Positions 573-25,081 of a DNA stretch of 64,000 bases are shown in pieces (the first letter of the stretch is position 1; each line of letters begins with the position of its first letter). The notes under the pieces were generated by a model. That model made no database searches and was not told where the DNA came from. It saw nothing but the letters and a program-made list of their open reading frames with translations. A program made the position numbers and the translations under genes. The stretch is from Burkholderia savannae (GTDB lineage: Bacteria > Pseudomonadota > Gammaproteobacteria > Burkholderiales > Burkholderiaceae): positions 1,860,001-1,924,000 of the forward strand of contig NZ_CP013418.1 in the NCBI RefSeq assembly GCF_001524445.2, read 5' to 3'.

Positions 573-591
573 AATAATGATAACAATTCTC
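573..591. promoter_or_regulatory. Fur box 1
   Basis: The 19-mer at 573-591 matches the E. coli Fur consensus GATAATGATAATCATTATC at 15 of 19 positions (mismatches at 573, 584, 585 and 589). It sits between the divergent receptor and AraC regulator genes, so iron repression of one or both is expected. Matches were counted by eye; binding is inferred. Confidence 0.75.
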
Positions 592-603
592 ATTTACATT
601 GCC

Positions 604-635
604 ACCCCGATCGGATCGACTTCTACCCCGATCGG
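604..635. promoter_or_regulatory. 21-bp-spaced direct repeats, candidate AraC-regulator site
   Basis: Two identical 11-mers, ACCCCGATCGG, begin at 604 and 625, a spacing of two helical turns. AraC-family activators commonly bind direct half-sites with this spacing. The repeats lie directly downstream of the Fur box and just upstream of the regulator start, which fits autoregulation as described for YbtA. A related sequence, ACCCG-TTT-CGGGT, occurs at about 1811-1823 in front of the biosynthetic operon. Assignment to this regulator is inference. Confidence 0.5.
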
Positions 636-2055: not shown

Positions 2056-2499
2056 ATGAACGACTTCATCGACACCCGATCCTGGCCGCTCGTGTATCTG
2101 CACATGCCCGCGCAGGTGCCCGATACGGAGGCGGATGCACGGCTCGCGCAGTTCAAGGCGCTGTACGCGCGCGCCGAGCCGTTCGTGCTGGTGATGGACG
2201 GCGAGGAGCTGCCGCGTCATTCGCCGCGCTTCGTATCCGCGTATGTTCAATGGAGTCGCGACAACGCCGAGCAGCAGCGGCTGTGCGCCGGCGCGATCCG
2301 CATCGAGGCGGACGGCGCGCGGCGGCGCGTCTATGAAGACAAGGCCCGCGCGTGGGACCGCGCCGGGCATGCGCCCTACCCGTTTCGCATCGCCGCGACG
2401 CACGTCGAAGCGCGCGCACAGGCGCAGGCGTGGCTTGAACAGGGCGGCGGCCGCGCGCGAACGCCGGCCGCGCCGCGCGCCGCGCGCAGAAGTCCGTAG
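2056..2499 (+). CDS. Small conserved-looking protein at the head of the siderophore operon, unknown function
   Basis: A 147-residue soluble protein without signal peptide or membrane segment. I do not recognise it. It starts MNDFIDTRSWPLVYLHMPAQ, has a central LVMDGEELPRHSPRFVSAYV segment and an Ala/Arg-rich C-terminus. The alternation of hydrophobic strands and helices (PLVYLHM, PFVLVMDG, CAGAIRIEADG, PFRIAATHVEARA) is reminiscent of small STAS/SpoIIAA-like alpha-beta folds, but that is an impression only. The start at 2056 is preferred to 1927 because the intervening codons are Arg/Cys/Pro-rich. It is the first gene after the Fur-box promoter and is 225 bp ahead of the NRPS, so it is probably co-expressed. 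A role in the siderophore pathway is inferred only from position; no counterpart is known to me in the enteric ybt operon. Confidence 0.6.
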   Translation: MNDFIDTRSWPLVYLHMPAQVPDTEADARLAQFKALYARAEPFVLVMDGEELPRHSPRFVSAYVQWSRDNAEQQRLCAGAIRIEADGARRRVYEDKARAWDRAGHAPYPFRIAATHVEARAQAQAWLEQGGGRARTPAAPRAARRSP

Positions 2500-2724
2500 C
2501 GCCGCGAGAGCGAACGCCGCGCCGAGTTGACCGGCGCACGGCGCCGCACGTGCCGCGGCAGCCGACGCGCCTCGTCACGCGAGCGTTTCCGCCCCCCCAT
2601 CCGAATACCGGCGACCGCACGACGCGTCGCGCCATCGCCCGCCAACGGGCGGCGGCGCGACGCGCCGGCGGAGCGTCCTTGCGTTCCGGGATTTCGCATT
2701 CCAACCGACTCGAGAGCTTCATTC

Positions 2725-5700
2725 ATGTCCGACCTTCACACGAGCCTCGCCTCCGATCCCGCCGCCGAAGCCGACCGCGTCGCGCTCGACGGCGCATCGC
2801 TGCGCGCCGAGCTTGCCGCTGAACTTGCCGCCGATCTGTCCGTCGAGCCCGAACGGCTCGACGCCGACGCGAACCTGCTGCAGCTCGGCCTCGACTCGAT
2901 GCGCCTGATGGCGTGGCTGAACCGGCTGCGCTCGCGCGGCCATACGCTGACGCTGCGCGAGCTGTACCGCGAGCCGACGCTCGCCGGCTGGCTCGCGCTG
3001 ATGCGGCGCAGCCCTGCGCGCGCCGTCGAGCGGCCCGCCGCGCCGCGCTCGTGGCCGACGATGCGCGACGGCGAAGCGTTCGCGCTGACGCCCGTTCAGC
3101 ATGCGTATCTCGTCGGCCGCTCCGCGCAGCAGCCGCTCGGCGGCGTCGGCTGCCATCTGTATCAGGAATTCGACGGCGCGGGGCTCACGCCCGACAGGCT
3201 GGAATCCGCCGTGCGCGCGCTGATCGCCCGTCATCCGATGCTGAGCGTCGCGTTCCGCGCGGACGGCAGCCAGCAATGGCGCGCGCGCTCGAGCTGGCCC
3301 GGCGTCGCCGTGCACGACTTGCGCGAATGCGGCGAAGCGGCGCGCGACGCTGCGCTCGCCGCGTTGCGCGAACGCCTCGGCCATCGCGTGCTCGACGTCG
3401 AGCACGGCGAGACGTTCGACTTCCAGCTGTCGCTGCTGCCGGGCGGGCGGCATCGCCTGCATGTCGATCTCGATCTGCTCGTGCTCGACGCGGCGAGCTT
3501 CACGCTCGTGTTCGACGAACTCGCGGCGCTCGTCGGCGGCCGCGCGCTGCCGGACGTCGGCGGCGGCGGCTACGACTTTCGCGGCTACGTCGCGCAACTG
3601 GCGCACGACGGCGCGGCCGCGCGCGACGCCGCGCAACGCTACTGGCGCGCGAAGCTGCCCGCGCTGCCCGCCGCGCCGCGACTGCCGCTCGCGCAGGAGC
3701 CCGAGCGCGTCGCGCCGGTGCGCTTCCGCCGCCGCCGCGCGGAGCTCGTCGACGCCGACTGGCGCGCGTTCAAGGCGCACGCGAGCGCATCCGGCGTCAC
3801 GCCGACGATGGCGCTCGCGACGTGCTTCGGCGCGGTGCTCGCGCGCTGGAGCGGCGAGCCGCGCCTGCTGCTGAATCTGACGCTGTTCGACCGCGAGCCG
3901 CTCGATCCGGCCGTCGAGCGGATGATCGCCGATTTCACCAACATCCTGCTGATCGATCTGGCCGCCGAAGGCGAGCCGTTCGACGCGCTCGCGCGCGAGA
4001 ATCAGGCGACCTTCGCCGACGCCTACGAGCATCGCCGCTGGTCCGGCGTCGAGCTGCTGCGCGAGCTGCGCAAGGCGCAACGCCATCCGTACGGCGCGCC
4101 CGTCGTGTTCACGAGCAATCTCGGCCGGCCGCTGTACGGCCGCGACACCGCCGCGGCGCTCGGCGAGCCCGCGTGGGGCATCTCGCAGACGCCGCAGGTG
4201 TGGATCGACCATCTCGCGTTCGAGCACGGCGCGTCGGCGTGGCTGCAATGGGACAGCATCGACGCGCTGTTTCCGCCGGGCCTCGTCGACGCGCTGTTCG
4301 ACGCGTACGTCGCGCTCGTGCGGCGCCTCGTGCGCGAGCCCGACGCATGGCGCAAGCCGCTGCCCGATCCGATGCCCGACGCGCAGCGCGCGGCTCGCGC
4401 GCGCGCGAACGACACCGCGCGGCCGGTGCCGGAAGGCCGCCTGCACGACGGCTTCTTCGACGCGGCCGCGCGCACGCCCGACGCCGTCGCGCTGATCCAT
4501 CGCGACGCGCGGCTCAGCTTTGCGACGCTCGCCGAGCAGGCGCGCCGCTGCGCGGGCGCGCTCGCGGCGCGCGGCGTGCGCGCGGGCGACACGGTCGCCG
4601 TCAGCATGTCGAAGGGCGTCGGGCAGATCGTCGCGGTGCTCGGCGCGCTGCACGCGGGCGCGGTCTACGTGCCCGTGCCGCTCGACCAGCCGGACGAGCG
4701 GCGCCGCAAGATCTACGACGACGCGCGCGTGAAGCTCGTGCTCGCGTGTCGCGACGATCCGTCGGCGGTCGCGGCGGCGGACGATCCGGCGCGCTACCTC
4801 GCGTGGCAGGACGCGATCGCGGCCGACGCGCTGCGCGATCCCGTCGCGGTCGATCCGCGCACGCCTGCCTACGTGATCTACACGTCCGGCTCGACCGGCA
4901 CGCCGAAGGGCGTCGTGATCCCGCATCGCGGCGCGCTCAACACGTGCGCGGAGCTCACCCGCCGCTACCGCGTCGGCGCGGGCGACCGTGTGCTCGCGCT
5001 GTCCGCGCTGCACTTCGATCTGTCGGTCTACGACATCTTCGGCGTGCTCGCGGCGGGCGGCGCGCTCGTGCTCGTCGACGAAGCGCAGCGGCGCGACCCC
5101 GCCGCGTGGTGCGAACTGATCGACCGCCATCGCGTGACCGTATGGAACAGCGTGCCCGCGCTGTTCGACATGCTGCTCACGTACGCCGACGGCTTCGCGC
5201 TCGGCGCGCCGTCGGCGCTGCGCATCGCGATGCTCTCGGGCGACTGGATCGGCCTCGACCTGCCCGCGCGCTACCGCGCGTTTCGCGCCGACGGCGAGCT
5301 CGTAGCAATGGGCGGCGCGACCGAGGCGTCGATCTGGTCGAACGCATACGACGTCGGCGACGTGCCGCCGCAATGGCGCTCGATCCCCTATGGCTTTCCG
5401 CTCGCGAACCAGCGCTACCGCGTCGTCGACGAGCAGCGCCGCGATTGCCCGGACTGGGTGCCGGGCGAGCTGTGGATCGGCGGCGAAGGCGTCGCGCTCG
5501 GCTACTTCAACGACGCCGAGCGAACGGCGCGGCAGTTCGTCGACGACGCGAACGGGCGCTGGTATCGGACGGGCGATCTCGGCTGCTACTGGCCCGACGG
5601 CACGCTCGAGTTTCTCGGCCGGCGCGACAAGCAGGTGAAGATCGGCGGCTATCGGATCGAACTCGGCGAGATCGACGCGGCGCTCAATCGCATTGACGGC

Positions 5701-8700
5701 GTCAAGACCGGCATCGCGCTCGCGCTCGGCGAACGCGACAAATCGCTCGCCGCGTTCGTCGTGCCGTCGGGCGACGCGCTGTTCGACGAACGGCGCGCCG
5801 ATCCGGCATGGCCGTCCGACTTTCGCGCATGGTTCGCGCCGCCGGACGCATCCGGCATCGCGCGAAGCGCCGATGCGGATGCGAATGCGAACGGCGACGA
5901 CGCCCGCTCCGCCGATGTCGATGTCGATGTCGATGCCGACACCGGCGGCGACCCGCGCGCGAACGCCGCCGCCTGCGACGCCCCCGCCGCGATCGCGAAA
6001 TCCGATGCGGACGTCGAGCGCCTCGTCGCCGATTTCCTGCACGACCATCTGCAACGCGAAGGCGTGAACTTCGACACGCCGCTCGACGTCGACGCGGCGC
6101 TCGCGCGATACGGCGCGCAGCCGGCGTGGCGCGCGCTGTTCGCACGCTGGCTCGCGCTGCTCGCCGCGCACGGCCGCGTCGCCGAAGAGCGCGGCGCATA
6201 CCGCCGCGGCCCGCGCCACGACGGCGCGCGCCGCCGGCCGCGCGCCGACGATCCGCTGTTCACGACCGCGGACGCGCTGCTCGCCCACCACGACGCGCTC
6301 GCCGCGATCCTGCGCGGGCAACGCCCGGCGCACACGCTGCTCGATCACCCGTTCTGGTCGCCGGAATCGCTGCTGCTGCGCAGCGACGGCGCCGGACGGA
6401 CGATCGACGCGCTCGCCGCCGCGCTCGCGGCGCTGTCCCGCACGCTCGCGCGGCCCGTGCGACTCGTCGAGACCGGCGCGCGCAGCGGCATGTTCGGCGA
6501 GGCGCTGCTGCGCCGTCTCGACGCGCGGCAGCTCACCTACACGGCTATCGACGCATCGCAGGACATGGTGCTGCGCGCCCAGGCGCGCCTCGCCGAATTC
6601 CCGCATGCGCAAGCGCGGCGCGCGGACCCCGCGGCGCTGAAGGACCTCGCGCACGCCGCGGACGCGATCTGGGCCAACAACGCGCTGCACCGCCTCGGCG
6701 AGCCCGCGCTCGGCGAACTCGCCGCGCTGGCCGCGCCGTCGGCGCTCGTCTACGTGACCGAGCTGCGTCGCGCGTCGGCGCTCGCGCTCGTCAGCGCCGA
6801 CCTGCTCGCGCACGGCGCAGCCGCGCAGCACGGCCTGCGCGGCGCGCAAGACTGGCGGCGCGCGTTCGACGCGCGCGGGCTCGCGTGCGAGCAGGCGGAC
6901 GACATCGGCGCGCACCAGCGCTTCGTGCTGCGCGCGCCCGCCGTCGTGCGCACGCCCGATCCGCGCAAGCTGAGCGAAGCGCTCGCCGCGCAGCTGCCGT
7001 CGTACATGCTGCCGCAGCGCCTGCATTTCATCGACGCGTTGCCGCTCACCGCGAACGGCAAGATCGATCACAAGGCGCTCCTCTCGCACTGCGCGCCCGC
7101 CGCTGCCGACGCCGCCGACGCCGCGCGGCAAGCGCCGCAGGGCGAAATCGAGACGGCCGTCGCCGACGTGTGGCGACGCCTGCTGCAGATCGATGCCGTG
7201 CATCGGCACAGCCACTTCCTGCAACTCGGCGGCGACAGCCTGCTCGCGACGCGCGTGATCGGCGAGCTCGATCGGGCCGGCTACGCGGCGCGGCTCGGCG
7301 ATCTGTTCGACTACCCGACGCTCGCCGCCTTCGCCGCGACGCTGCGCCCGCGCGCCGAGCCGGCGGCCGCCGCGTTGCGGCGCGACGCCGCGTCGCGCTT
7401 CGCGCCGTTCCCGCTCACGAACGTCCAGCAGGCGTATCTGGTCGGCCGCCAGGCCGGCTTCGCGCTCGGCGGCGTCGGCTCGCACTTCTTCGTCGAATTC
7501 GAAGTCGAGCGGCTCGACGTCGCGCGTTTCGAGGCGGCGTGGAACCGCCTGATCGCGCGTCACGACATGCTGCGCGCGGTCGTGCGCGACGGCCGGCAGC
7601 AAGTGCTCGCCGACGCGCCGCCGTTCGTCCTCGCGCGCCATCGCGTCGCGAGCCTCGATGGTCCCGACGCAATCGCGCTGCGCGAGCGGCTCGCGCACCA
7701 GGTGCTCGACCCGGCGCGCTGGCCGGTGTTCGACGTGCAGGCGGCCGAAGACGGCGGCGCGCGCAGCCGGCTCTACGTATGCCTCGACAATCTGCTGCTC
7801 GACGGCCTCAGCATGCAGATCCTGCTCGCCGAGCTCGAACAGCTGTACGTCGCGCCCGATCGCGCGCTGCCGCCGCTCGAGATCGGTTTTCGCGATTACG
7901 TGACGCACGCCGCCGGCCGCCGCGCGAGCGAAGCGTCGCTCGCCTACTGGCGGCGCCGGCTCGACGATCTCCCGTGCGCGCCGCAACTGCCGCTTCGCCG
8001 CGCGCCCGGCGAAATCGGCACGCCGCGCTTCGCGCGCCTGTCGGCGCGGCTCACGCGCGCGCAATGGGACGCGCTGAAGGCGCGCGCCGGCGCGGCGAGC
8101 CTGACGCCGTCGGCACTGCTGCTCGCCGCGTACTCGGCCGTGCTGTCCGCGTGGAGCGCGCAGCGCGAGCTGTGCGTGAACCTCACGCTGTTCGACCGGC
8201 AGCCCGTCCATCCGCAGATCGAGCAGGTGCTCGGCGATTTCACGTCGCTGCTGCTGCTCGCGTGGCAGCCCGCGAACAACTGGCTCACGAGCGCGCAGCG
8301 ATTGCAGCAGCGGCTGTGGCAAGACCTCGCGCACCGCGACGTGTCCGCGCTTTGGGTGATGCGCCAGCTCGCGCAGCGGCACGGCCGCGCCGCCGCCGAG
8401 ATGCCCGTCGTGTTCACGAGCGCGCTCGGCTTCGAGCACGACCGCTTCCTCGCGCACGCGTCCTGGCTCGAACCGCGATGGGGCATCTCGCAGACGCCAC
8501 AGGTCTGGCTCGATCACCAGGTGTACGAATCGGAGGGCGAGCTGCGCTTCAACTGGGATGCGGTCGAAGCGCTGTTCGAGCCCGATCGGCTGCGCGCGAT
8601 GTTCGATCAGTACGTCGCGCTGCTGCAGCGGCTCGCGTCCGACGCATCGGCGTGGCGGCTGCCGCTCGACGTCCTCGTGCCGCGTGTCGGCCAGGCCGGC

Positions 8701-9129
8701 GCGCGGACGCCGCGCGGCGACGCGCCCGCCGCCGCGAACATCGCGACCGCGACGCACGCCGCGCGCTCGACGCACGCCGCCGCCGCGCCGATCGACGCAG
8801 CCCGCGGCGACACGCCCGTCGACGCCGCGCTCGTCGGCCGGCTGCGCCAGCACTTCGAGCAAACGCTCGGCCTGCCGATCGCCGCGCGGCAGAGCTTCTT
8901 CGAGGCGGGCGCGACTTCGCTCGAGCTCGTCCAATGGCACGTCAGGCTCCGGCACGCGGGCTACGCGTCGCTCGCGGTGACGGATCTCTTCACGCACGCG
9001 TCGCCGCACGCGCTCGCCGCGCATCTCGGCGGCGCGAGCGCGCCCGCCCCGGCCGACGACGCGAACCGCCGCGCGCGCCTCGATCAACGCAAGGCGAATC
9101 TGCAACGCCGGCGAGGAGCCGCCGCATGA
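2725..9129 (+). CDS. irp2: HMWP2/Irp2-like nonribosomal peptide synthetase
   Basis: A 2134-residue NRPS expected to load salicylate and add two cyclised cysteines. Domain order: aryl carrier (LGLDSM, phosphopantetheine Ser58), cyclisation domain Cy1 (from about 118; DxxxxDxxS at D250-D255-S258), adenylation domain (YTSGSTGTPKGV at about 718; YRTGDL about 946), a roughly 400-residue methyltransferase-like insertion between A8 and A10, A10 LPLTANGKID (about 1434), carrier PCP1 (GGDS, Ser1505), Cy2 (D1688-D1693-S1696), and carrier PCP2 (GATS, Ser2065). This is the order of yersiniabactin HMWP2 (2035 residues). The specificity residues read by eye are D-L-Y-N-M-S-M-I-W-K, close to the cysteine code DLYNLSLIWK. 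The inserted domain has a broken SAM motif (ETGARSG near 1249), as in epimerase-type insertions. The start at 2725 (MSDLHTSLAS) is chosen over 2527. The stop overlaps the next start (ATGA). Confidence 0.93.
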   Translation: MSDLHTSLASDPAAEADRVALDGASLRAELAAELAADLSVEPERLDADANLLQLGLDSMRLMAWLNRLRSRGHTLTLRELYREPTLAGWLALMRRSPARAVERPAAPRSWPTMRDGEAFALTPVQHAYLVGRSAQQPLGGVGCHLYQEFDGAGLTPDRLESAVRALIARHPMLSVAFRADGSQQWRARSSWPGVAVHDLRECGEAARDAALAALRERLGHRVLDVEHGETFDFQLSLLPGGRHRLHVDLDLLVLDAASFTLVFDELAALVGGRALPDVGGGGYDFRGYVAQLAHDGAAARDAAQRYWRAKLPALPAAPRLPLAQEPERVAPVRFRRRRAELVDADWRAFKAHASASGVTPTMALATCFGAVLARWSGEPRLLLNLTLFDREPLDPAVERMIADFTNILLIDLAAEGEPFDALARENQATFADAYEHRRWSGVELLRELRKAQRHPYGAPVVFTSNLGRPLYGRDTAAALGEPAWGISQTPQVWIDHLAFEHGASAWLQWDSIDALFPPGLVDALFDAYVALVRRLVREPDAWRKPLPDPMPDAQRAARARANDTARPVPEGRLHDGFFDAAARTPDAVALIHRDARLSFATLAEQARRCAGALAARGVRAGDTVAVSMSKGVGQIVAVLGALHAGAVYVPVPLDQPDERRRKIYDDARVKLVLACRDDPSAVAAADDPARYLAWQDAIAADALRDPVAVDPRTPAYVIYTSGSTGTPKGVVIPHRGALNTCAELTRRYRVGAGDRVLALSALHFDLSVYDIFGVLAAGGALVLVDEAQRRDPAAWCELIDRHRVTVWNSVPALFDMLLTYADGFALGAPSALRIAMLSGDWIGLDLPARYRAFRADGELVAMGGATEASIWSNAYDVGDVPPQWRSIPYGFPLANQRYRVVDEQRRDCPDWVPGELWIGGEGVALGYFNDAERTARQFVDDANGRWYRTGDLGCYWPDGTLEFLGRRDKQVKIGGYRIELGEIDAALNRIDGVKTGIALALGERDKSLAAFVVPSGDALFDERRADPAWPSDFRAWFAPPDASGIARSADADANANGDDARSADVDVDVDADTGGDPRANAAACDAPAAIAKSDADVERLVADFLHDHLQREGVNFDTPLDVDAALARYGAQPAWRALFARWLALLAAHGRVAEERGAYRRGPRHDGARRRPRADDPLFTTADALLAHHDALAAILRGQRPAHTLLDHPFWSPESLLLRSDGAGRTIDALAAALAALSRTLARPVRLVETGARSGMFGEALLRRLDARQLTYTAIDASQDMVLRAQARLAEFPHAQARRADPAALKDLAHAADAIWANNALHRLGEPALGELAALAAPSALVYVTELRRASALALVSADLLAHGAAAQHGLRGAQDWRRAFDARGLACEQADDIGAHQRFVLRAPAVVRTPDPRKLSEALAAQLPSYMLPQRLHFIDALPLTANGKIDHKALLSHCAPAAADAADAARQAPQGEIETAVADVWRRLLQIDAVHRHSHFLQLGGDSLLATRVIGELDRAGYAARLGDLFDYPTLAAFAATLRPRAEPAAAALRRDAASRFAPFPLTNVQQAYLVGRQAGFALGGVGSHFFVEFEVERLDVARFEAAWNRLIARHDMLRAVVRDGRQQVLADAPPFVLARHRVASLDGPDAIALRERLAHQVLDPARWPVFDVQAAEDGGARSRLYVCLDNLLLDGLSMQILLAELEQLYVAPDRALPPLEIGFRDYVTHAAGRRASEASLAYWRRRLDDLPCAPQLPLRRAPGEIGTPRFARLSARLTRAQWDALKARAGAASLTPSALLLAAYSAVLSAWSAQRELCVNLTLFDRQPVHPQIEQVLGDFTSLLLLAWQPANNWLTSAQRLQQRLWQDLAHRDVSALWVMRQLAQRHGRAAAEMPVVFTSALGFEHDRFLAHASWLEPRWGISQTPQVWLDHQVYESEGELRFNWDAVEALFEPDRLRAMFDQYVALLQRLASDASAWRLPLDVLVPRVGQAGARTPRGDAPAAANIATATHAARSTHAAAAPIDAARGDTPVDAALVGRLRQHFEQTLGLPIAARQSFFEAGATSLELVQWHVRLRHAGYASLAVTDLFTHASPHALAAHLGGASAPAPADDANRRARLDQRKANLQRRRGAAA

Positions 9130-16300: not shown

Positions 16301-19300
16301 CCGCTGGCGCCGGCGCGCCCGATCCGGCCGCGGGCATCCTCGTCCACGATCCCGCGAACCGCTTCGAGCCGTTCCCGTTGACGCCGATCCAGCACGCGTA
16401 CTGGCTCGGCCGCACGGATCTGATCGCGTACGGCGGCGTCGCATGCCACGTGCTGTTCGAATGGGACATGCGGCACGACACGTTCGACCTCGCGCGCTTC
16501 GAGGCCGCGTGGAACGCGCTCGTCGCGCGCCACGACATGCTCCGGATGATCGTCGACGCCGACGGCCGCCAGCGGATTCTGCGCGACGTGCCCGCATACC
16601 GGCCGCAGCGGCGCGACCTGACGCGCGCCGCCGCCGACGAGCAGGCGCGCGCGCTCGAACGCACCCGCGACGAGCTGTCGTACCGCGTGCTGCCCGCCGA
16701 CCGCTGGCCGCTCTTCGAGCTCGTCGTGACCGAGCTGGACGACACGCGCTACCGGCTCCACATGAACCTCGACCTGCTGCTGTTCGACGTGCAGAGCTTC
16801 AAGGTGATGATGGACGATCTCGCGAGCGCGTATCGCGGCGCGGCACTCGAGCCGCTGCAGATCACGTTCCGCGATTACGTGCTCGCCGAGCACGCACGCC
16901 GCGACGCGCCCGACTGGCAGGCATCGTGGCGCTACTGGCAGCGCACGCTGCCGCAATTGCCGCCCGCGCCCGTGCTGCCGCTCGCGCCCGCGCGCGCCGA
17001 CGATGCGCGGCCCCGCTTCACCACGTATCAGGCGCGCCTCGCGCGCGCGGACTGGGACACGCTCAAACGCGAATGGCAGCGCTGGGGCGCGACGCCGTCG
17101 GCCGCGCTGCTCGCGCTCTTCGCGCACACGCTCGAACGCTGGAGCCGGCATCCGGACTTCACGCTGAACCTGACGTTCTTCAACCGGCGGCCCGACCATC
17201 CGCAGGTCTCCCAATTGATCGGCGATTTCACGTCGGTGCTGCTGATCGATTTCGCGCTCGGCGGCGGGCCGACGCTGCGCGACACGATCGAGCGCACGCA
17301 GCAACGGCTCTGGCAGCGCCTCGCGCACAGCCAGGTCAACGGCGTCGAGCTGATGCGCGAGCTGTCGCGCGGCCGCGCGCACGATCCGCGCCGGCCGCTG
17401 ATGCCGGTCGTGTTCACGAGCATGCTCGGGATGTCGCTCGACGGCCTGAGCATCGACCAGGCGATGACGAGCCTGTTCGGCGAGCCCGTTCATGTGTTCA
17501 CGCAGACGCCGCAGGTCTGGCTCGACCATCAGGTGATGGAAGTCGACGGCGATCTCGTGTTCAGCTGGTACTGCATGGACGACGTGCTCGCGCCCGGCGC
17601 CGCGCAGGCGATGTTCGACGATTACCGGTGCCTGCTGCGCGGCGCCGCCGCGCAACCGGAGCGGATGATGCAGCCGGGGCTCGCGAAGCTGCGCGACGAC
17701 GGCGCATGGGCGGATTTCGAACGTCGGCGCTGGCCGCTGCATGTCGGCAACGCAGGCGATTCGGAAGACCCGGTCGACGCCGGCGTCGATCTGCGCGACA
17801 TCGAGGACGCACTGCGCGCGCAGCACGGCGTGGCCGACGCCGACGCCGCGCTCGCCGAGGACGGACGCACGCTCGACATCGTCGTCTGCGCTGCGCACGC
17901 ATGCGGCGCGCCGCCGCCGTCGCTCGACGCGCCGCTGGCGTTGGCGTCCGCGCTGCCGATGCTCGACGCCGCTCAGCTCGCGGAAATCGATGCGACGTGG
18001 CGCTGGCTCGAAGCGCGCGCGCTGCACGGCATCGCCCGGACGCTGAATCGCCACGGCCTGTTCGCGCAAGCCGGGCAGCGCCACGATCTCGACGACGTGC
18101 AATCGCGCCTGCGCGCGCTGCCGCAGTATCGCCGGCTGGCGCGCCAATGGCTGATCGCGCTCGGCGAGCGCGGCTGGCTGCGGCGCGAAGGCGACGCGTT
18201 CGTCTGCAAGCGCGCGCTCGATGCGGTTCCCGATGCGGCCGAAGCGCTGCCGCAAGCCGACTGGAGCCGCGCGCTCGGCGCGTATCTCGACGCATGCATC
18301 GCGCGCCACGACGCGTTGTTCGACGGCACGCAAGCGCCGCTCGCGCTGCTGTTCGACGACGACGATGCGGTCACCCGCGCGCTGTACAGCGACAATCCGG
18401 CGATCGACTGCCTGAACCGAAGCGCCGCGCAGATCGCGCGCGCGCTCGGCGAGCCGGCGGGCGGGTTGCGCGTGCTCGAAGTCGGCGCCGGCACCGCGGC
18501 GACGACACGCCATCTCGTGCCCGCGCTCGACGGCCGACTGCACGGCTACCGCTTCACCGACGTGTCGACGCTGTTCCTCGACGCCGCGCGCGAACGCTTC
18601 GCCGATCACGCGAAGCTCGACTACGCGATCTTCGACATCAACGCGCCGGTCGATTTCGATGCGCATCCCGAAGCGGGCTACGACGTCGTGGTCGCGGTCA
18701 ACGTGCTGCACGACGCGAGCGACGTCGTGCGCTCGCTGCGCCGCCTCGGGCGCTTGCTGAAGCCGGGCGGCCGCCTGCTGATGATCGAGGCGACCGAACG
18801 CGACAGCGCGCTGCAGATGGCGAGCATCGGCTTCATCGAAGGCCTGAACGGCTACGAAGACTTCCGCACGGCCGACGACAAGCCGATGCTCGATCTGCCG
18901 TCATGGCGCGACGCGCTCGGGCAGGCGGGCTTCACCGTCGAGCTCGCGTGGCCGGAGCAGGAACGCAGCCCGCTGCGCCAGCATCTCGTGCTCGCGCGCG
19001 CGACGCACGTCGGCCGGCTCGAGCCCCGTGCGCTCGAACGCGAGCTGCGCGCGCGCTTCGGCCGCGCGCTGCCGCCCGCGCGCATCCGGCAATGCGAGCG
19101 CATCGATCGATATGCGGACCGCGTCGCCGAGCGGCATCGCGAAGCGGCCGACGAAACGCCGGCCCGCGCGGCGCGCGCGCCCGTCGCGCCGCCGCGCGAC
19201 CCGCACGCACAGGCCGCGCTCGAGCGCAGCGTCGGCGAAGCGTGGCAGGCGCTGCTGAAGTGCCCGATCCATCGCGACAGCGACTTCTTCCAGTCGGGCG

Positions 19301-20238
19301 GCGACAGCCTGATCGCGACGCGCATGATCGCGCAGCTCAATCGCGGCGGCATGCGCGGCGCGAGCCTGCAGGCGCTCTTCGCGCAGCCGACGCTCGGCGC
19401 GTTCTGCGCGACGCTGACCGCGCCGCCGGCGACCGAAGCGCGGGCGGGCGACTGCGTCGTGCCCCTTGCCGAAGGACGCGATCCGGCGCGCGTGTTCGTG
19501 TTCCACGCGTCCGACGGCGAGCTCGCCGCGTACGTGACGCTCGCGCGCCGCCTCGACTGCCGCGTCCACGGCCTGCGCGCGCCGGACGCCGCGCTGCCCG
19601 CCGATCTCGGCGCGCTCGCCGGCCGTTACGTGCAGGCGATGCGCGCATCGCAGCCCCACGGGCCGTACACGCTGATCGGCTGGTCGTACGGCGCGACCGT
19701 CGCCGCCGAGGCCGCGCGCCTGCTGCACGCGCGCGGCGAGACGGTCGAACTCGTGCTGCTCGATCCCGTGTGCCGCGACGATTTCCGCCACGCCGATCGC
19801 GCATCGCTGTTGCGTCTGCTCGCACGAGGGCGCGTCGCCGTGCCGCTGCCCGACGATCTCGAACAGCGCGACGCGGACGAGCAGACCGCATGCTTCGTCC
19901 ACGCCGCGCAGGCGGCCGGGCTGCTGCCCGAACGCTCGAACGCCGCCGACGGCGAGCGCTGGCTCGCACGCATCGGCGATCTGCTCGGCCTGCTCGCGCG
20001 CCACCCCGCGCCCGCCCCGCTGCCGATCCGCTGCCTGTGGATCGCCGCCGCGCATCGCCCGTCCGTCTGGCAGCCGGCCGAGCGCGACTGGCACGGCTGG
20101 GGCGCGCACGCGCAACGCCACACGCTCGACGCAGACCATTGGACGCTCGTGATGGACGACGCACGAGCGCAACATGTCGCCGCCCTGTTCCGGCAGTGGC
20201 GCGACGACCATCGCCGCCCGCAGGAGAAAGTCGCATGA
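10351..20238 (+). CDS. irp1: HMWP1/Irp1-like hybrid polyketide-nonribosomal peptide synthetase
   Basis: A 3295-residue megasynthase. Domains in order: ketosynthase (Cys197 in TACSSS, His333 in EAHGTGT, His372 in GNVGHLD), acyltransferase (GHSVGEYAAA, Ser674), C-methyltransferase (EVGGGTGG near 1141), ketoreductase (TGAFGGLG near 1632), acyl carrier (LGLDSL, Ser1943), cyclisation domain (about 2005-2400; D2141, D2146, S2149), second methyltransferase (LEVGAGTAATT near 2710), peptidyl carrier (GGDS, Ser2986) and thioesterase (GWSYG, Ser3112; DADHW, His3263). This matches yersiniabactin HMWP1 domain for domain. It should extend the salicyl-bis-heterocycle with malonate, methylate, add and cyclise a third Cys and release the product. 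Odd: the ketoreductase has His1773 and Ser1777 where canonical domains have the catalytic Tyr and Asn. No adenylation domain is present, so Cys must be supplied in trans by the A domain of the HMWP2-like protein. Confidence 0.93.
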   Translation: MDKATSSARPAADLDALLATHYPHGEPIAVIGHACRFPEADDSDAFWRNLLAGAECSRRFTRQEMLDAGLDAATIDAPNFVNVGTVVRDADAFDAALFGYSRQEAESIDPQQRLFLQIVWHALEHAGYAPRNVAHRTGVFGSARVSTYPGQEPLRIAEVAQVKGLQSLMGNDKDYVATRVAYKLNLRGPALAVQTACSSSLVAAHLACESLRSGECDMAVAGGVAVSFPQHAGYLHQPGMIFSPDGRCRPFDADAQGTFAGNGVGAIVLRRLGDALRDGDPVVAVLLGSAINNDGDRKVGYTAPSAAGQRDAIRDALMLAGVDSTQIGLVEAHGTGTPLGDPIELEALRGVFHRADEGPRCALGSVKGNVGHLDTAAGIASLLKAVLAVERRAIPPSLHLRKPNPALGLDDSPFFVPTDAQPWNDASRVAGVSSFGIGGTNCHMVVASLPDALRAAVGGNGEGNRDGDGNGDIDCNGDGKTESEGESESESDDSHAQPDAGAALLLSAASEPALQRLARSYADALKRANARDLLHTALHGRQLDLPHRLAVPFCAETIAALDAFAAGEDDALVHRGSGDAGQMAWLFTGQGSHWPGMGQTLYRQSSAFAACLDRCFAACDGELDVPLRDAMFGERGDLLERMDYAQPAIVAFELAMAAHWRALGLEPQLVIGHSVGEYAAAVVAGHYEIEQAMPLVRLRGALMQRCAQGAMLAAFAGADALLPLAACAGVDVAAYNDERHLVFSGRSDAIDTLAADLVARNIRHARLAVTGAAHSALLDPVLDAFERATAQLNAAPGRVPLVSTLLGGPIDAHGLNARDYWRRHMREPVRYADAIRHALAQGANVFLELGPDAQLTGIGLRGAQPGARWIASARRRQPALAQTRQALLELYAAGVALPWAKVLPSSGRKLHAPRYPFDTERYWRDARPAAAAAPPAAHGGDFDLALAEGRRIAATAAASLDLPRLQRLYDCVTQLHAIYVDRLVRRCVGERFDEGASALGILRAGRLLPRHRQLLVRLLNACVEDGYYRRDGDRYAPALAVPHADRDALLQILRECCEGFDAIADTVARAGDSLYAMMRGDIEPVAVIFPDSASSGVEVLYQEFSFGRYFNQIAAGVVAGLVRERQAGRRAHRPFRILEVGGGTGGTTAWLLPELDGAPNVRYDFTDISPIFTRRAEQKFAAHGCVDYRVFDLQKDAQTQGFEAGAYDLIVAANVIHATQHVGRTLANLAPLLKPGGRLLMREITRPMRLFDFVFGPLVLPLHDEDARGGELFLSTARWKAQCVEAGFERVDWLPDDGAPTSGISEHIVLASMPGRPAGAASWLDEDADPLVGQPLTDDGVYLADWSDCAGERDAWRQRLARSAAELAARHGGGRAAPAIRAPECAPAWLTLVRLRWCGSLFGAARIALDARDEAGAWRPLDADANADSGHGHSGSDARDLPAPQPARDTHYGWRWRPVPDASPDASDIALHAESAPLADTLRAAGVPVSPSAECRLLVLDSDAHSPHEVAAALLDALSDASRAPLVVVTRGAWKIRADDPVAPAHRAAWGLLRVAAAEQPDRMLAAIDLHPHAAWRDLPPALGALGALGHGARWLAVRDGRVHAPSLAAQPYAAPALPAGGFADERWHVVTGAFGGLGRLSVRWLARHGARRIALVAPRAHDDWPAFQREIAAQHRGELRWVRCDVAEPAQLAAALHALHADGGVAGAIHAAGILDDAPLAALDAERVAPVLALKADAARVLRDWLGAHGARYLVCYSSAAAALGAPGQGAHALASAYLDGLADAHAGDETPSVISVAWGAWGEAGRAAQSALQRKLAENGMGVLSTAEGLWHLEQAVMRGAPYRLAMRVLHERLDVGRRALFGTDADQSPARLARNPAAGVSAESCAPAAAGATLAAERPDPRDAQAVCRWLTARIAAQLKLDDLAQLTPTRDLLKLGLDSLLFLELRSAVESQLGVRLDAERAYRDMTVAGIGRLIAESAPAGAGAPDPAAGILVHDPANRFEPFPLTPIQHAYWLGRTDLIAYGGVACHVLFEWDMRHDTFDLARFEAAWNALVARHDMLRMIVDADGRQRILRDVPAYRPQRRDLTRAAADEQARALERTRDELSYRVLPADRWPLFELVVTELDDTRYRLHMNLDLLLFDVQSFKVMMDDLASAYRGAALEPLQITFRDYVLAEHARRDAPDWQASWRYWQRTLPQLPPAPVLPLAPARADDARPRFTTYQARLARADWDTLKREWQRWGATPSAALLALFAHTLERWSRHPDFTLNLTFFNRRPDHPQVSQLIGDFTSVLLIDFALGGGPTLRDTIERTQQRLWQRLAHSQVNGVELMRELSRGRAHDPRRPLMPVVFTSMLGMSLDGLSIDQAMTSLFGEPVHVFTQTPQVWLDHQVMEVDGDLVFSWYCMDDVLAPGAAQAMFDDYRCLLRGAAAQPERMMQPGLAKLRDDGAWADFERRRWPLHVGNAGDSEDPVDAGVDLRDIEDALRAQHGVADADAALAEDGRTLDIVVCAAHACGAPPPSLDAPLALASALPMLDAAQLAEIDATWRWLEARALHGIARTLNRHGLFAQAGQRHDLDDVQSRLRALPQYRRLARQWLIALGERGWLRREGDAFVCKRALDAVPDAAEALPQADWSRALGAYLDACIARHDALFDGTQAPLALLFDDDDAVTRALYSDNPAIDCLNRSAAQIARALGEPAGGLRVLEVGAGTAATTRHLVPALDGRLHGYRFTDVSTLFLDAARERFADHAKLDYAIFDINAPVDFDAHPEAGYDVVVAVNVLHDASDVVRSLRRLGRLLKPGGRLLMIEATERDSALQMASIGFIEGLNGYEDFRTADDKPMLDLPSWRDALGQAGFTVELAWPEQERSPLRQHLVLARATHVGRLEPRALERELRARFGRALPPARIRQCERIDRYADRVAERHREAADETPARAARAPVAPPRDPHAQAALERSVGEAWQALLKCPIHRDSDFFQSGGDSLIATRMIAQLNRGGMRGASLQALFAQPTLGAFCATLTAPPATEARAGDCVVPLAEGRDPARVFVFHASDGELAAYVTLARRLDCRVHGLRAPDAALPADLGALAGRYVQAMRASQPHGPYTLIGWSYGATVAAEAARLLHARGETVELVLLDPVCRDDFRHADRASLLRLLARGRVAVPLPDDLEQRDADEQTACFVHAAQAAGLLPERSNAADGERWLARIGDLLGLLARHPAPAPLPIRCLWIAAAHRPSVWQPAERDWHGWGAHAQRHTLDADHWTLVMDDARAQHVAALFRQWRDDHRRPQEKVA

Positions 20239-21353
20239 AATCCACTCACGCGCGCAACAGGCGCGTACTCGTCGCCGGCGCGAAATTCGGCGAAACCTAT
20301 CTGAACGCGTTTCTCGCGCCGCAGCCGGGGCTCGAGCTCGCGGGCCTCCTCGCGAACGGCAGCCCGCGCGCGCGGCAACTGGCTCACGCGTTCGGCATTC
20401 CGCTCTACACGTCGATCGACGAGGTGCCGGGCGACATCGACATCGCGTGCGTGGTCGTCCGCTCGACGGTCGTCGGCGGCGCCGGCACGTCGCTCGCGCA
20501 GGCGTTCCTCGAACGCGGCGTGCACGTCGTGCAGGAGCATCCGCTGCATCCGGACGACATCGCCCGCCTGCAACGGCTCGCCGCGCAGCGCGAATGCGCG
20601 CACTGGGTCAACAGCTTCTATGCGCACACGCCGGCCGGCCGCTGCTGGATCGATCGCGCGCGGCGCGTGCGGCATGCGCTCGGCGGCGAGCCCGCGCATT
20701 TCGCGCACCTCGCCACGAGCCGGCAATTGCTCTATTCGTCGCTCGATCTGCTGCTGCAGGCGAGCGGCGCCGTCGACGCGACCGTCGACGGCGCCGCCGA
20801 CGACGATCCCGCGTTCCGCACGCTGCGAATCGGCCTGCCCGGATGCCGCGCGACGCTGCGCTTGCAGACCTATCTCGATCCCGACGATCCCGATCTGCAC
20901 AGCCTCGCGATGCATCAGCTCACGCTCGGCTGGCCGTCCGGCTATCTGTCGCTCGAGGCGAGCTACGGCCCGGTCGTCTGGACCGCCGCGCTGTACGACC
21001 CGCGACATCGCGACAGCCAGCGCAGCGCGTACCGGACGACGGGCGCCGACGGCGCGCATCTCGACCTGCCGCCCGCACTGCCGCTGCATCCCGCGCCGGC
21101 GAGCTGGCGCGACGCGCTCGAGGCCGACGGCCCCGCGGGCGTCGCGCACGTGCTGCACGCGCTGCGCCGGCATCTCGACGGCGCGCTGCCGCCCGCCGCG
21201 TTCGACGCCGCCTACCAGCTCGCGCTCGCCCGCGTCTGGCAAAAGGCGCTGCAATGCGCGGGCCCCGCGCGCGAGCGCAGCGTCGCGCCGCCGCCGGCGA
21301 TCGATCCGCGCGCGCTCGTCGACGCGCAATCCGACGAGCAGGTGGCGGCATGA
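20235..21353 (+). CDS. irp3: Thiazolinyl imide reductase, YbtU/Irp3/PchG family
   Basis: A 372-residue NAD(P)H-dependent reductase expected to reduce one thiazoline ring to thiazolidine while the chain is bound to the synthetase. The N-terminus RRVLVAGAKFGETYLNAF is the Rossmann opening typical of the YbtU/PchG family, and further family-like segments follow: ACVVVRSTVVGG, ERGVHVVQEHPLHPDDI and WVNSFYAHTPAGR. Length is close to YbtU and PchG (about 350-366). The ATG overlaps the stop of the HMWP1-like gene by 4 bp and its own stop overlaps the thioesterase start the same way. The gene order irp1-irp3-irp4 equals that of enteric ybt operons. Confidence 0.9.
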   Translation: MKSTHARNRRVLVAGAKFGETYLNAFLAPQPGLELAGLLANGSPRARQLAHAFGIPLYTSIDEVPGDIDIACVVVRSTVVGGAGTSLAQAFLERGVHVVQEHPLHPDDIARLQRLAAQRECAHWVNSFYAHTPAGRCWIDRARRVRHALGGEPAHFAHLATSRQLLYSSLDLLLQASGAVDATVDGAADDDPAFRTLRIGLPGCRATLRLQTYLDPDDPDLHSLAMHQLTLGWPSGYLSLEASYGPVVWTAALYDPRHRDSQRSAYRTTGADGAHLDLPPALPLHPAPASWRDALEADGPAGVAHVLHALRRHLDGALPPAAFDAAYQLALARVWQKALQCAGPARERSVAPPPAIDPRALVDAQSDEQVAA

Positions 21354-22117
21354 ACGAGCGGCGGATGCTGCGCCCATGGATCGCGTCGCCGGAGCCGGCC
21401 GCGTGGCGGCTCGTCATGTGCCCGTTCGCGGGCGGCAGCAGCAGCGCGTTCCGCGACTGGCGCCAGGTCGACGATTTCGGCGTCGACGTCGCGCTCGCGA
21501 TCTATCCGGGCCGCGACCACCGGATGCGCGAGCCGGCCGCGGACGACATCGGCGGGCTCGCCGATCAGCTCGCCGACGAGTTGATCGACACGCGCGCGTC
21601 GCCCGGCAAGCTGATCCTCGCCGGCCACAGCATGGGCGCGCAGGTCGCGTTCGAAACCTGCGAGCGCCTCGAGCGGCGCGGCGCGCCGCCGTTCGCGCTC
21701 GTGCTGTCCGGCTGCCACGCGCCGCACCTGCAAGGGCGGCGCCTGCTCAGCCATCTCGACGACCGCACGTTCGTCGATCAGCTCGTCGAGATCGGCGGCA
21801 GCGACCCGACGCTGCTGTCCGATCCGTCGCTGCTCGCGATCTTCCTGCCGATGCTGCGCGCCGATTTCCGGATCACCGAGTCCTATCGCCGCCCGCCGCA
21901 TGCCGCCCGGCGCCGTATCGACACGCCGACGCTGCTCGTCTACGGCAGCCGCGACGCCGAGGCGTCGCGCGACGAAGTCGCCGCGTGGCGCGACTGGCTC
22001 GCTCACGCGGACGAGCCGATCGCGATGCCCGGCGACCACTTCTACGCGACCCGCAGGCCGCGCGCGTTTCTGCAACAGATCCTGCGCCGGCTCGAGTCGA
22101 CTTCCGCATGTGTGTGA
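21350..22117 (+). CDS. irp4: Type II (editing) thioesterase, YbtT/Irp4-like
   Basis: A 255-residue alpha/beta hydrolase that would remove mis-primed or stalled acyl groups from the carrier domains of the two megasynthetases. The N-terminus MCPFAGGSSSAFRDW is typical of type II thioesterases. Catalytic residues visible are Ser94 in AGHSMGAQ, Asp202 in YGSRDAEAS and His230 in MPGDHFYA. It overlaps the preceding reductase by 4 bp (ATGA) and the next gene starts 15 bp after its stop, all in one transcription unit. Confidence 0.92.
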   Translation: MNERRMLRPWIASPEPAAWRLVMCPFAGGSSSAFRDWRQVDDFGVDVALAIYPGRDHRMREPAADDIGGLADQLADELIDTRASPGKLILAGHSMGAQVAFETCERLERRGAPPFALVLSGCHAPHLQGRRLLSHLDDRTFVDQLVEIGGSDPTLLSDPSLLAIFLPMLRADFRITESYRRPPHAARRRIDTPTLLVYGSRDAEASRDEVAAWRDWLAHADEPIAMPGDHFYATRRPRAFLQQILRRLESTSACV

Positions 22118-22132
22118 CCCTCAGAGAAGCTC

Positions 22133-25081
22133 ATGGAAACTCTTCTTCATCCGAATCCGAACGAAACGGCCCGCACCGTCGCGGCCGCCCCTGACCACTC
22201 CGGCGCCGCGCTGCCGCTCGGCGAGCATCTGCGCCGCTGGGCGGCCGATCACGCGACGCGCACCGCGCTCGTCGCGGGCGGCGAGCGCGTGCCGTTCGCC
22301 GCGCTCGATCGCCGCGTCGATCGGCTCGCGGCCGGGCTGCACGGGCTCGGCCTGCGCCCCGGCGACCGCGCGATGGTTCAGCTGCCGAACGGGATCGCGT
22401 TCGTCACCGTCTGCTTCGCCCTCTTTCGCCTCGGCGTGGTGCCCGTGCTCGCGATGCCGACGCAGCGCTCGCGCGACATCGACGCGCTCTGCCGCATCGC
22501 CGAGCCCGCCGCCTACTTCGTCGCGGACGAAACCGACGGCGTCGACGCGCGATCGCTCGCCGTCGAGATGCTCGACGCGCATCCGTCGCTGCGCCGCGTC
22601 GTCGTCGACGGCGGGCCGGGCCGGCACGGCGACGAACGCATCGTGCCGCTCGCGTCGCTCGATGCGCCGCCGCGCGCGTTGACGCCGCCCGCGCCGGCCG
22701 ATGTCGCGCTGCTGCTCCTGTCCGGCGGCACGACCGGCACGCCGAAGCTGATTCCGCGCACGCATGCGGACTACGCGTACAACTTCGGCGCGTCGGCCGA
22801 GCTCTGCCGGCTCGACGAAGCGAGCGTCTATCTGGCGGTGCTGCCGGCCGCGCACAACTTCACGCTCGCGTGCCCCGGCATACTCGGCACGCTGTCGCGC
22901 GGCGGCACCGTCGTGCTGTCCGACACGGCGAGCTGCGACGAAGCGATGCCGCTGATCGCGCGCGAGCGGGTCACGCACGTCGCGCTCGTGCCGCCGCTCG
23001 CGCAGCTCTGGGCGCAGGCGCGCGAATGGGAGCGCAGCGATCTGTCGAGCCTGCGGCTCGTCCAGGTCGGCGGCGCGCGGCTCGATCCGCCGCTCGCGCG
23101 CCGCCTGCCCGACGTGCTCGGCTGCCGTCTGCAACAGGTGTTCGGCATGGCCGAAGGGCTGCTCTGCTACACGCGGCTCGACGATTCGCTCGATACGATC
23201 GTGCACACGCAGGGGCGGCCGCTGTCGTCGCGCGACGACATCCGCATCGTCGACGCGCACGGCCGCGACGTCGGCGCCGGCGAGATCGGCGAGCTGCTGA
23301 CGCGCGGGCCATACACGATCCGCGGCTACTATCGCGCGCCGGAGCACAACGCGCGCAGCTTCACGGCCGACGGCTATTACCGCACCGGCGATCTCGTGCG
23401 CCGCGATGCGGCCGGCAACCTGATCGTCGAAGGCCGCATCAAGGAGCAGATCAATCGCGGCGGCGAAAAAATTTCCGCCGCGGAAATCGAGCAGTTGCTC
23501 AATACGCTGCCGGGCGTGCAGGATTCGGCCGTCGTCGCGGTTCCCGACGCGCTGCTCGGCGAGCGCATCTGCGCGTTCGTGCGCCCGCAGCGCGATGCGC
23601 TCGACGCCGCCACGCTCAAGCAGGCGCTGCGCGCGCGCGGGCTCAGCGAATTCAAGCAGCCGGACCAGATCGAAATCGCCGCGCATTGGCCGTTGACGTC
23701 GGTCGGCAAGATCGACAAGCAGCGCCTGATCGCGCTCGCCCGCGCGCGCGACGCCGCCCCGGCGCGGCGTTACGTCGAGCGGCAACTGAGCGTGCGAAGC
23801 GAGCCGCTCGAGCTCGCGTCGCGCGTGATGCGCGCGTTGCCGAGCCGGCATTGCACGCTCTACGAGCGTGACGGCGAATGGAGCGTCGGCATCGATTCGG
23901 CGTTGAGCGTGATTGTCGAGCCGGACGGCGCGGTGCGCCGCAGCGACGGCGCATGCTGGCGCAACGTGCCGCCGTGCGACGCGATCGCGACCGCGCTCGC
24001 CGACGTCGGGATCGACGCATGGCGCGCGTACGGCCGCGCCCATTTCGAGTTCGCGCATCTGACGTACGGCGTCGCCGGCGCGCGCGGCGACGCGCCGCTG
24101 CTGCGGCTCGCGATTCCGCAAAGCGAGATCCGGATGTCGAGCGGCCGCGCGCTGATCCGCAGCCTGGAGCCCGACGCGCTCGCGACGCTCGCCGAGCTGG
24201 TCATGACGCAGGACGCCGCGCGCGACGCCGAGTCCGGCGCGCGTCTCGAGGCGATCGACGACGATCGCGACGCCGCCGCATACAAGGAGCAGGTCGCGTC
24301 CGCGGTGCGCGAGATGCAGGCGGACGCGTATCAGAAGGTGATCCTGTCGCGCGCGGTCGAGGTTCCGGCATCGCTCGACACGGTGTCGAGCTACGTCGCG
24401 GGCCGCCGGACGAACACGCCGGCGCGCTCGTTCCTGCTTCGCGACGGCGCTTTCGAAGCCTACGGCTTCAGCCCCGAGACGGTCGTCGAAGTGAGCGCCG
24501 ACGGCTTCGTCAGCACGCAGCCGCTCGCCGGCACGCGCGCACTGACGGGCGACGACGCCGAAGACGCGCGCCTGCGGCGCGAACTGCTGCGCGACGCGAA
24601 GGAAATCGCCGAACATGCGGTATCGGTGCAACTGGCGATGGACGAAATGTCGTCCGTCTGTGACGCCGATTCGCTCGGCGTCAGCGAATTCATGAGCGTC
24701 TACCGGCGCGGCACCGTCCAGCATCTCGCGTCGCGCGTGCGCGGGCGGCTCGCGGCGGGCCGCCATGCGTGGCATGCGTTCGAGAAGCTGTTCCCCGCCG
24801 TCACGGCGTCGGGCATTCCGAAGCGGGAAGCGCTCGACAGCATCCGGCGCCACGAACGACGCTTGCGCGGCCTGTACAGCGGCTGCGTGTTCGTCGTCGA
24901 CAGCGAAGGCGCGATGGACGCGGCGCTCGTGCTGCGCTCCGTGTATCGGGACGGCGAGCGCTGCTGGCTGCAGGCCGGCGCGGGGCTCGTTCCGCTGTCG
25001 ACGCCGGAGCGCGAATGGACGGAGACTTGCGAAAAGCTCGCTTCGGTCGCGCGTCATCTGCGGGGGCGGGCGGACGCGTAG
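22133..25081 (+). CDS. Fused salicyl-AMP ligase and salicylate synthase (YbtE-YbtS / Irp5-Irp9 fusion)
   Basis: A 982-residue bifunctional protein. Residues 1 to about 540 form an aryl-acid adenylating enzyme of the DhbE/YbtE type: A3 motif LSGGTTGTPK (Ser197, Lys205), AAHNFTLACPG with Asn242 at the position where amino-acid A domains carry Asp, YYRTGDLVRR, and A10 VGKIDKQRL near 523. Residues about 545-982 form a chorismate-utilising salicylate synthase of the Irp9/YbtS/MbtI family: QKVILSRAVE near 733, STQPLAGTRAL, RDAKEIAEHAV with the metal-binding Glu, and TASGIPKREAL (SGIPK at 893-897). One chain should turn chorismate into salicylate, adenylate it and hand it to the aryl carrier domain of the NRPS. 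In the enteric ybt locus these are separate genes (ybtE, ybtS). The frame is continuous, with no stop or start between the halves. It is the last gene of the operon, 15 bp after the thioesterase and 21 bp before a tandem array. Confidence 0.95.
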   Translation: METLLHPNPNETARTVAAAPDHSGAALPLGEHLRRWAADHATRTALVAGGERVPFAALDRRVDRLAAGLHGLGLRPGDRAMVQLPNGIAFVTVCFALFRLGVVPVLAMPTQRSRDIDALCRIAEPAAYFVADETDGVDARSLAVEMLDAHPSLRRVVVDGGPGRHGDERIVPLASLDAPPRALTPPAPADVALLLLSGGTTGTPKLIPRTHADYAYNFGASAELCRLDEASVYLAVLPAAHNFTLACPGILGTLSRGGTVVLSDTASCDEAMPLIARERVTHVALVPPLAQLWAQAREWERSDLSSLRLVQVGGARLDPPLARRLPDVLGCRLQQVFGMAEGLLCYTRLDDSLDTIVHTQGRPLSSRDDIRIVDAHGRDVGAGEIGELLTRGPYTIRGYYRAPEHNARSFTADGYYRTGDLVRRDAAGNLIVEGRIKEQINRGGEKISAAEIEQLLNTLPGVQDSAVVAVPDALLGERICAFVRPQRDALDAATLKQALRARGLSEFKQPDQIEIAAHWPLTSVGKIDKQRLIALARARDAAPARRYVERQLSVRSEPLELASRVMRALPSRHCTLYERDGEWSVGIDSALSVIVEPDGAVRRSDGACWRNVPPCDAIATALADVGIDAWRAYGRAHFEFAHLTYGVAGARGDAPLLRLAIPQSEIRMSSGRALIRSLEPDALATLAELVMTQDAARDAESGARLEAIDDDRDAAAYKEQVASAVREMQADAYQKVILSRAVEVPASLDTVSSYVAGRRTNTPARSFLLRDGAFEAYGFSPETVVEVSADGFVSTQPLAGTRALTGDDAEDARLRRELLRDAKEIAEHAVSVQLAMDEMSSVCDADSLGVSEFMSVYRRGTVQHLASRVRGRLAAGRHAWHAFEKLFPAVTASGIPKREALDSIRRHERRLRGLYSGCVFVVDSEGAMDAALVLRSVYRDGERCWLQAGAGLVPLSTPEREWTETCEKLASVARHLRGRADA

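What the first reader, a model, noticed from the sequence alone, without database searches (positions are those of the whole stretch)
2056..25081. Yersiniabactin-type siderophore locus in a Burkholderia-like chromosome
Seen: two megasynthetases with the exact domain orders of HMWP2 and HMWP1, followed by YbtU-, YbtT-, YbtE- and YbtS-like functions, a YbtA-like regulator and a FyuA-like receptor. Known: Burkholderia siderophores usually described are ornibactin, pyochelin, malleobactin and cepaciachelin-type. Inference: the product is a salicyl-thiazoline siderophore related to yersiniabactin, ulbactin or piscibactin, possibly a new congener.
Basis: partly seen in the sequence, partly recalled or inferred. 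Interest (0 to 1): 0.85.

Follow-up and report, generated by a model that had tools for sequence, protein, structure and literature searches.

The report
Yersiniabactin-type siderophore genes in Burkholderia
A Burkholderia genome carries an apparently complete set of genes of the yersiniabactin kind for making and taking up an iron-scavenging molecule, with two of the starter enzymes joined into one protein; the pathway type is already known.

Summary
Window 2056-25081 is a seven-gene operon; with the AraC gene and receptor start to its left and two ABC-transporter genes just outside the window, counterparts of all eleven genes of the enterobacterial yersiniabactin island are present. The synthetases have the HMWP2 and HMWP1 domain orders and the catalytic motifs I checked. 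This favours yersiniabactin itself over a new congener. Differences from the island: salicyl-AMP ligase and salicylate synthase are one 982-residue protein; the YbtX-like transporter sits between irp2 and irp1; a 147-residue protein with a predicted SpoIIAA-like fold heads the operon. In the ligase tree the island's separate YbtE falls in a mostly fused group and its YbtS lies far off, so the island's split layout may be derived. Related loci are in print as predictions for Ralstonia solanacearum phylotype II and B. plantarii. No product was measured.

The parts
1..373 (-). 5' part of a FyuA-like TonB-dependent siderophore receptor gene; the rest lies left of the window (G000:C2:1858202-1860373)
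   Evidence: Pfam Plug and beta-barrel on the 724-aa frame; NCBIfam TonB-siderophor 232 bits, cut-off 223.5; 42% identical to the protein after ybtE in K. oxytoca
578..592 (.). Fur-box-like site in the divergent receptor/regulator promoter
   Evidence: 2 mismatches to a recalled 7-1-7 consensus; 12 of 100 shuffles also gave a match; identical in one sister genome and one base different in the other. Suggestive only
604..635 (+). pair of 11-base direct repeats 21 bases apart, possible AraC-type operator
   Evidence: Degenerate pattern present in 3 of 121 loci searched, one for each of the three species; half-sites with up to 3 mismatches are not enriched in the window (9 found, 7.3 expected). 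Suggestive only
659..1621 (+). YbtA-like AraC-family regulator, 320 aa
   Evidence: Pfam HTH_18; 51% to the AraC protein next to irp2 in K. oxytoca
2056..2499 (+). 147-aa protein at the head of the operon, predicted SpoIIAA/STAS-like fold, function unknown
2725..9129 (+). HMWP2/Irp2-like synthetase, 2134 aa
   Evidence: PDB matches 7ry6 (HMWP2) and 7jtj (Irp2) among others
9126..10358 (+). MFS transporter, YbtX-like, 410 aa
   Evidence: Pfam MFS_1; 33% to the YbtX-position protein of K. oxytoca; RhtX/FptX match below its cut-off
10351..20238 (+). HMWP1/Irp1-like PKS-NRPS, 3295 aa
20235..21353 (+). YbtU-like thiazolinyl imine reductase, 372 aa
   Evidence: Pfam Irp3-like_C; NCBIfam TIGR01761 377 bits, cut-off 188.8
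21350..22117 (+). YbtT-like type II thioesterase, 255 aa
   Evidence: Pfam Thioesterase; 48% to the K. oxytoca counterpart
22133..25081 (+). fused salicyl-AMP ligase (about 1-540) and salicylate synthase (about 556-978), 982 aa
   Evidence: Pfam; TIGR03494 salicylate synthase 479 bits, cut-off 325; PDB matches PchD 7tyb and Irp9 2fn0

Best explanation
This is a complete yersiniabactin synthesis and uptake locus, kept with its flanks in three related Burkholderia genomes. Shown by sequence: the synthase half of the fused protein carries the salicylate synthase signature and its ligase half resembles salicyl-AMP ligases; the HMWP2-like line has an aryl carrier, two cyclization domains and one adenylation domain with a methyltransferase-like insert and a pocket stretch like that of HMWP2; the HMWP1-like line has one polyketide module with methyltransferase and ketoreductase, then a cyclization domain, a second methyltransferase, a carrier and a thioesterase. 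Inferred: chorismate becomes salicylate and salicyl-AMP on one protein; the line builds thiazoline, thiazolidine (reduced by the YbtU-like enzyme), dimethyl linker and methylthiazoline; the product is yersiniabactin. Uptake is by the FyuA-like receptor and the YbtP/YbtQ-like transporters; the AraC protein and iron limitation (Fur) probably control expression.
For: Domain orders. Carrier serines, Cy motifs, KS, AT, both SAM motifs, KR and TE motifs kept, with small changes beside the catalytic residues, in the 7 Irp1 and 6 Irp2 proteins aligned. Counterparts of all eleven island genes at 33-63% identity. TIGR03494 and TIGR01761 above cut-off. Seven genes with four stop/start overlaps of 4 or 8 bases and no inner stop. 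Same setting in G006 and G396. Irp1 82% to a protein named from Ralstonia solanacearum, a species whose phylotype II is reported to hold a yersiniabactin cluster (PMC10073495, passages).
Against: No metabolite data. The adenylation pocket was compared as a stretch, not by a formal specificity code. The YbtX-like match is weak (33%). The Fur-like and operator-like sites are weak statistically. The species name rests on genome size. For the nearest relatives outside Burkholderia I saw cluster predictions, not an isolated product.
Confidence: 0.8

Rival explanations
1. The line makes a close congener of yersiniabactin (altered methylation, stereochemistry or terminus).
For: Synthetases are only 55-57% identical to the enterobacterial ones; piscibactin-type lines show that modest domain changes give new termini (PMC9177418, passages).
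Against: No domain gained or lost and the checked motifs kept; no extra methyltransferase or oxidase among the operon proteins scanned.
Confidence: 0.15
2. The locus is silent or non-functional in this strain, kept as a relic.
For: A related genome (G369) holds a collapsed copy, so decay occurs in the genus; two surveys of Burkholderia siderophores or antimicrobials do not contain the word yersiniabactin (PMC10826400 and PMC9958762, word search of the texts).
Against: All seven operon frames are open, motifs are kept, and three genomes keep the locus at 89-91% DNA identity.
Confidence: 0.05

Closest known systems
Yersiniabactin locus of the enterobacterial high-pathogenicity island (K. oxytoca copy, L111 and L025)
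   Same: All eleven gene functions, both domain orders, catalytic motifs, AraC gene beside irp2 with the ABC genes on the opposite strand
   Different: Ligase and synthase fused here; transporter moved between irp2 and irp1; receptor next to the AraC gene and not after the ligase gene; extra 147-aa gene; 33-63% identity
Proteins named from Ralstonia solanacearum (P0123, P0005, P0243)
   Same: Irp1 82%, fused ligase-synthase 84%, small protein 68% identical in alignments
   Different: Another genus; that the three lie together in one strain, and their gene order, was not checked
Locus of an uncultured Comamonas (L015, L112)
   Same: Irp2-Irp1-YbtU-YbtT-fused ligase-synthase in the same order
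   Different: No transporter between irp2 and irp1; 56-60% identity
Piscibactin/photoxenobactin lines of Xenorhabdus and Photorhabdus
   Same: Salicyl-thiazoline logic; fused ligase-synthase proteins 51-53% identical
   Different: HMWP1 counterpart lacks cMT1 and has an extra Cy-A-T module (PMC9177418, passages)
Micacocidin and massiliachelin lines (Ralstonia, Massilia)
   Same: Thiazoline-thiazolidine siderophores; the massiliachelin paper uses yersiniabactin as a comparison (PMC6604713, whole text)
   Different: Pentyl-bearing starter built by MicC-type proteins (its iterative PKS nature is recalled), not by a salicylate synthase; N-methylated thiazolidine in massiliachelin

Membership tests
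Yersiniabactin-type biosynthetic locus | HMWP2 domain order with one A domain, two Cy domains, three carriers | tested here: met
Yersiniabactin-type biosynthetic locus | HMWP1 domain order KS-AT-MT-KR-carrier-Cy-MT-carrier-TE | tested here: met
Yersiniabactin-type biosynthetic locus | salicylate synthase of the Irp9 kind and salicyl-AMP ligase | tested here: met
   both on one protein. The ligase half scores below the cut-off of the 2,3-dihydroxybenzoate ligase model TIGR02275 (612 against 724 bits)
Yersiniabactin-type biosynthetic locus | thiazolinyl imine reductase YbtU | tested here: met
   TIGR01761 above cut-off
Yersiniabactin-type biosynthetic locus | FyuA receptor, YbtP/YbtQ, YbtA | tested here: met
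   42%, 55%, 56%, 51% identity to the K. oxytoca proteins in those places
Yersiniabactin-type biosynthetic locus | yersiniabactin as product | not testable with these tools
   needs LC-MS
Piscibactin/photoxenobactin locus | HMWP1 counterpart without cMT1 and with an extra Cy-A-T module | tested here: not met
   two methyltransferase domains, one Cy and no A domain in Irp1
Micacocidin locus | iterative PKS (MicC) supplying an alkyl-salicyl starter (recalled) | tested here: not met
   the only KS among the operon proteins scanned is in the HMWP1-like protein; salicylate synthase present
Pyochelin locus | NRPS proteins without a PKS module, separate PchA and PchB (recalled) | tested here: not met
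   PKS module and one-protein salicylate synthase
Ulbactin locus | assembly-line domain order | not tested
   no ulbactin sequence was fetched or identified

The most novel reading that the evidence does not exclude
The fused salicylate synthase/salicyl-AMP ligase is the older form of the yersiniabactin starter enzyme, passing salicylate within one protein; the enterobacterial island arose from such a locus by loss of the synthase half of its YbtE, and its separate YbtS came from another lineage. The small SpoIIAA-like protein that heads several such loci is an unrecognised part of yersiniabactin biology.
Probability: 0.35. Interest if true: 0.5.

Novelty: new member of a known kind. Interest (0 to 1): 0.38.

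Why it matters
It puts a complete yersiniabactin-type locus in species near the Burkholderia pseudomallei complex, whose siderophores were listed without it in the two surveys I checked, and suggests that the classical enterobacterial gene layout is one derived version of a wider pathway. The fused starter enzyme makes a simple question testable: whether joining salicylate synthesis to its activation helps the line start.

Tried and rejected
Rejected: piscibactin, micacocidin and pyochelin membership (see the table). Rejected: recent acquisition in this species alone; the locus and flanks align in order, with gaps of some hundred bases, from -7.1 to 32.0 kb in G006 and from -3.2 to 38.7 kb in G396, which is as far as I fetched.

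Not resolved: whether the fusion arose once. Holding all 34 fused rows together is rejected for the ligase (AU p 8e-5) and the synthase (p 0.0008), but the trees are unrooted and several rows have long branches. Against my derived-island reading: in the careful ligase tree the 17 fused rows that I took as yersiniabactin-type (their neighbours were not all checked) are one side of a branch without the island pair (support 81/87.9), so the pair may be their sister and independent fusions are not excluded; the case rests on a starred set of 24 rows, 21 of them fused. One split row (L031, Methylobacterium) also lies in that set. The island YbtS has an end branch of 1.65 changes per column, so its place is unsure.

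Literature: in ten searches no listing, and no passage I opened, describes the fused enzyme or this locus in B. savannae. Only open-licence papers are held; the species description (PMC8752149) and the micacocidin cluster paper (PMC3165373) were not held. The census with the HMWP1-like protein failed three times.

Full report
What is there. The window is G000:C2:1860001-1924000 of a 7,427,555-base genome in three contigs. PMC10826400 gives, for two B. savannae genomes, three contigs and 7,254,364 +/- 173,191 bases (passages); mean plus deviation is exactly 7,427,555, so the genome is very probably B. savannae. By the same table G006 (6.6 Mb, two contigs) fits one of two B. mayonis genomes and G396 (7.3 Mb, three contigs) fits B. 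humptydooensis. These names are inferences from size; the best named match of the fused protein, 91%, is to B. humptydooensis.

The operon. Seven genes run on the plus strand from 2056 to 25081, all starting with ATG and without an inner stop; four junctions overlap, by 4 or 8 bases. In order: a 147-residue protein, the HMWP2-like synthetase, a transporter, the HMWP1-like synthetase, a YbtU-like reductase, a YbtT-like thioesterase and a fused ligase-synthase. Upstream lie an AraC gene (659-1621) and, on the other strand, a TonB-dependent receptor that runs off the window's left edge, followed outside it by two ABC transporters.

Comparison with the classical island. Against the K. oxytoca island (L025, L111) I found counterparts of all eleven genes: receptor 42%, YbtP-position 55%, YbtQ-position 56%, AraC 51%, Irp2 55%, YbtU 54%, YbtT 48%, YbtE 63%, YbtS 41%, YbtX-position 33%, and Irp1 57% to the Klebsiella pneumoniae HMWP1. 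The names YbtX, YbtP and YbtQ rest on recalled gene order. In the alignments of 7 HMWP1-like and 6 HMWP2-like proteins the carrier serines, cyclization motifs, KS and AT motifs, both SAM motifs, and the KR and TE motifs agree apart from small changes beside the catalytic residues (for example DHW here against SHW in Klebsiella at the TE histidine), and so does the stretch that holds the adenylation pocket. PMC6604713 (whole text) reports a B-type ketoreductase in HMWP1 and MicG; I did not map its two marker residues here.

The fused enzyme. The ligase half matches PchD (7tyb, E 3.2e-172) and the synthase half Irp9 (2fn0, E 6.4e-89); TIGR03494 scores 479 bits against a cut-off of 325. In a draw of 398 genomes of the family, 8 hold a match at E<=1e-170 and 7 a YbtU-like match at E<=1e-60; 6 are in both sets. 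One further fused match, G014, came from the search of 61 genomes and is not in the 398-genome result. The fusions of G005 and G014 sit beside NRPS modules, with no HMWP1-like polyketide part found in the stretches read (L012-L014), so the fusion is not confined to yersiniabactin lines.

Trees. Of the 52 ligase rows, 26 come from the 120 listed homologs, 25 from the 80 named loci, and one is the window (34 fused, 18 split; chosen by hand). The island YbtE pair lies in a starred set of 24 rows of which 21 are fused. Among 50 synthase rows (34 fused, 16 split) the island YbtS stands apart on a long branch. The reading I prefer is that the island's split pair is derived, with the synthase half lost and a separate synthase recruited. 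This is inference: the trees are unrooted and independent fusions are not excluded.

Distribution and history. In G006 and G396 the locus aligns at 89-91% DNA identity, and the long flanking pieces at 81-94% in the same order, so it was probably in their common ancestor. Irp1 is closer to a protein named from Ralstonia solanacearum (82%) than to that of B. plantarii (73%) or of B. pyrrocinia (75% by BLAST), which suggests exchange between genera. In print, a yersiniabactin cluster is reported within the compared Ralstonia strains only for phylotype II (PMC10073495, passages), and a cluster 41% similar to yersiniabactin for B. plantarii KACC 18964 (PMC11153758, passages). The word yersiniabactin does not occur in the main text of two Burkholderia surveys (PMC10826400; PMC9958762).

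Verdict. A real, intact member of a known kind, with a fused starter enzyme and one unexplained small gene as its points of interest.

Noticed in passing
L129/L130 (G369:C2, about 2105.6-2111.5 kb): A genome whose Irp1 remnant is 99% identical to the B. plantarii protein keeps the AraC gene, small gene, YbtU and YbtT but has one 741-residue frame joining the start of Irp2 to the end of Irp1, and no ligase-synthase match in the 40 kb read: a collapsed locus, or an assembly fault.
   Followed up: partly
window 37603-37893, minus strand: A 96-residue H-NS-like protein (Pfam Histone_HNS) in a stretch of low G+C, 46-62% in 250-base steps between 36.5 and 39.0 kb.
   Followed up: no
L012 and L014 (G005, G014): Fused ligase-synthase beside NRPS modules in other genomes of the genus, probably another salicyl-capped metallophore.
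   Followed up: no
L023, L024: In the Psychromonas hadalis and Sporomusa ovata records the ligase half of the fusion is interrupted in frame.
   Followed up: no
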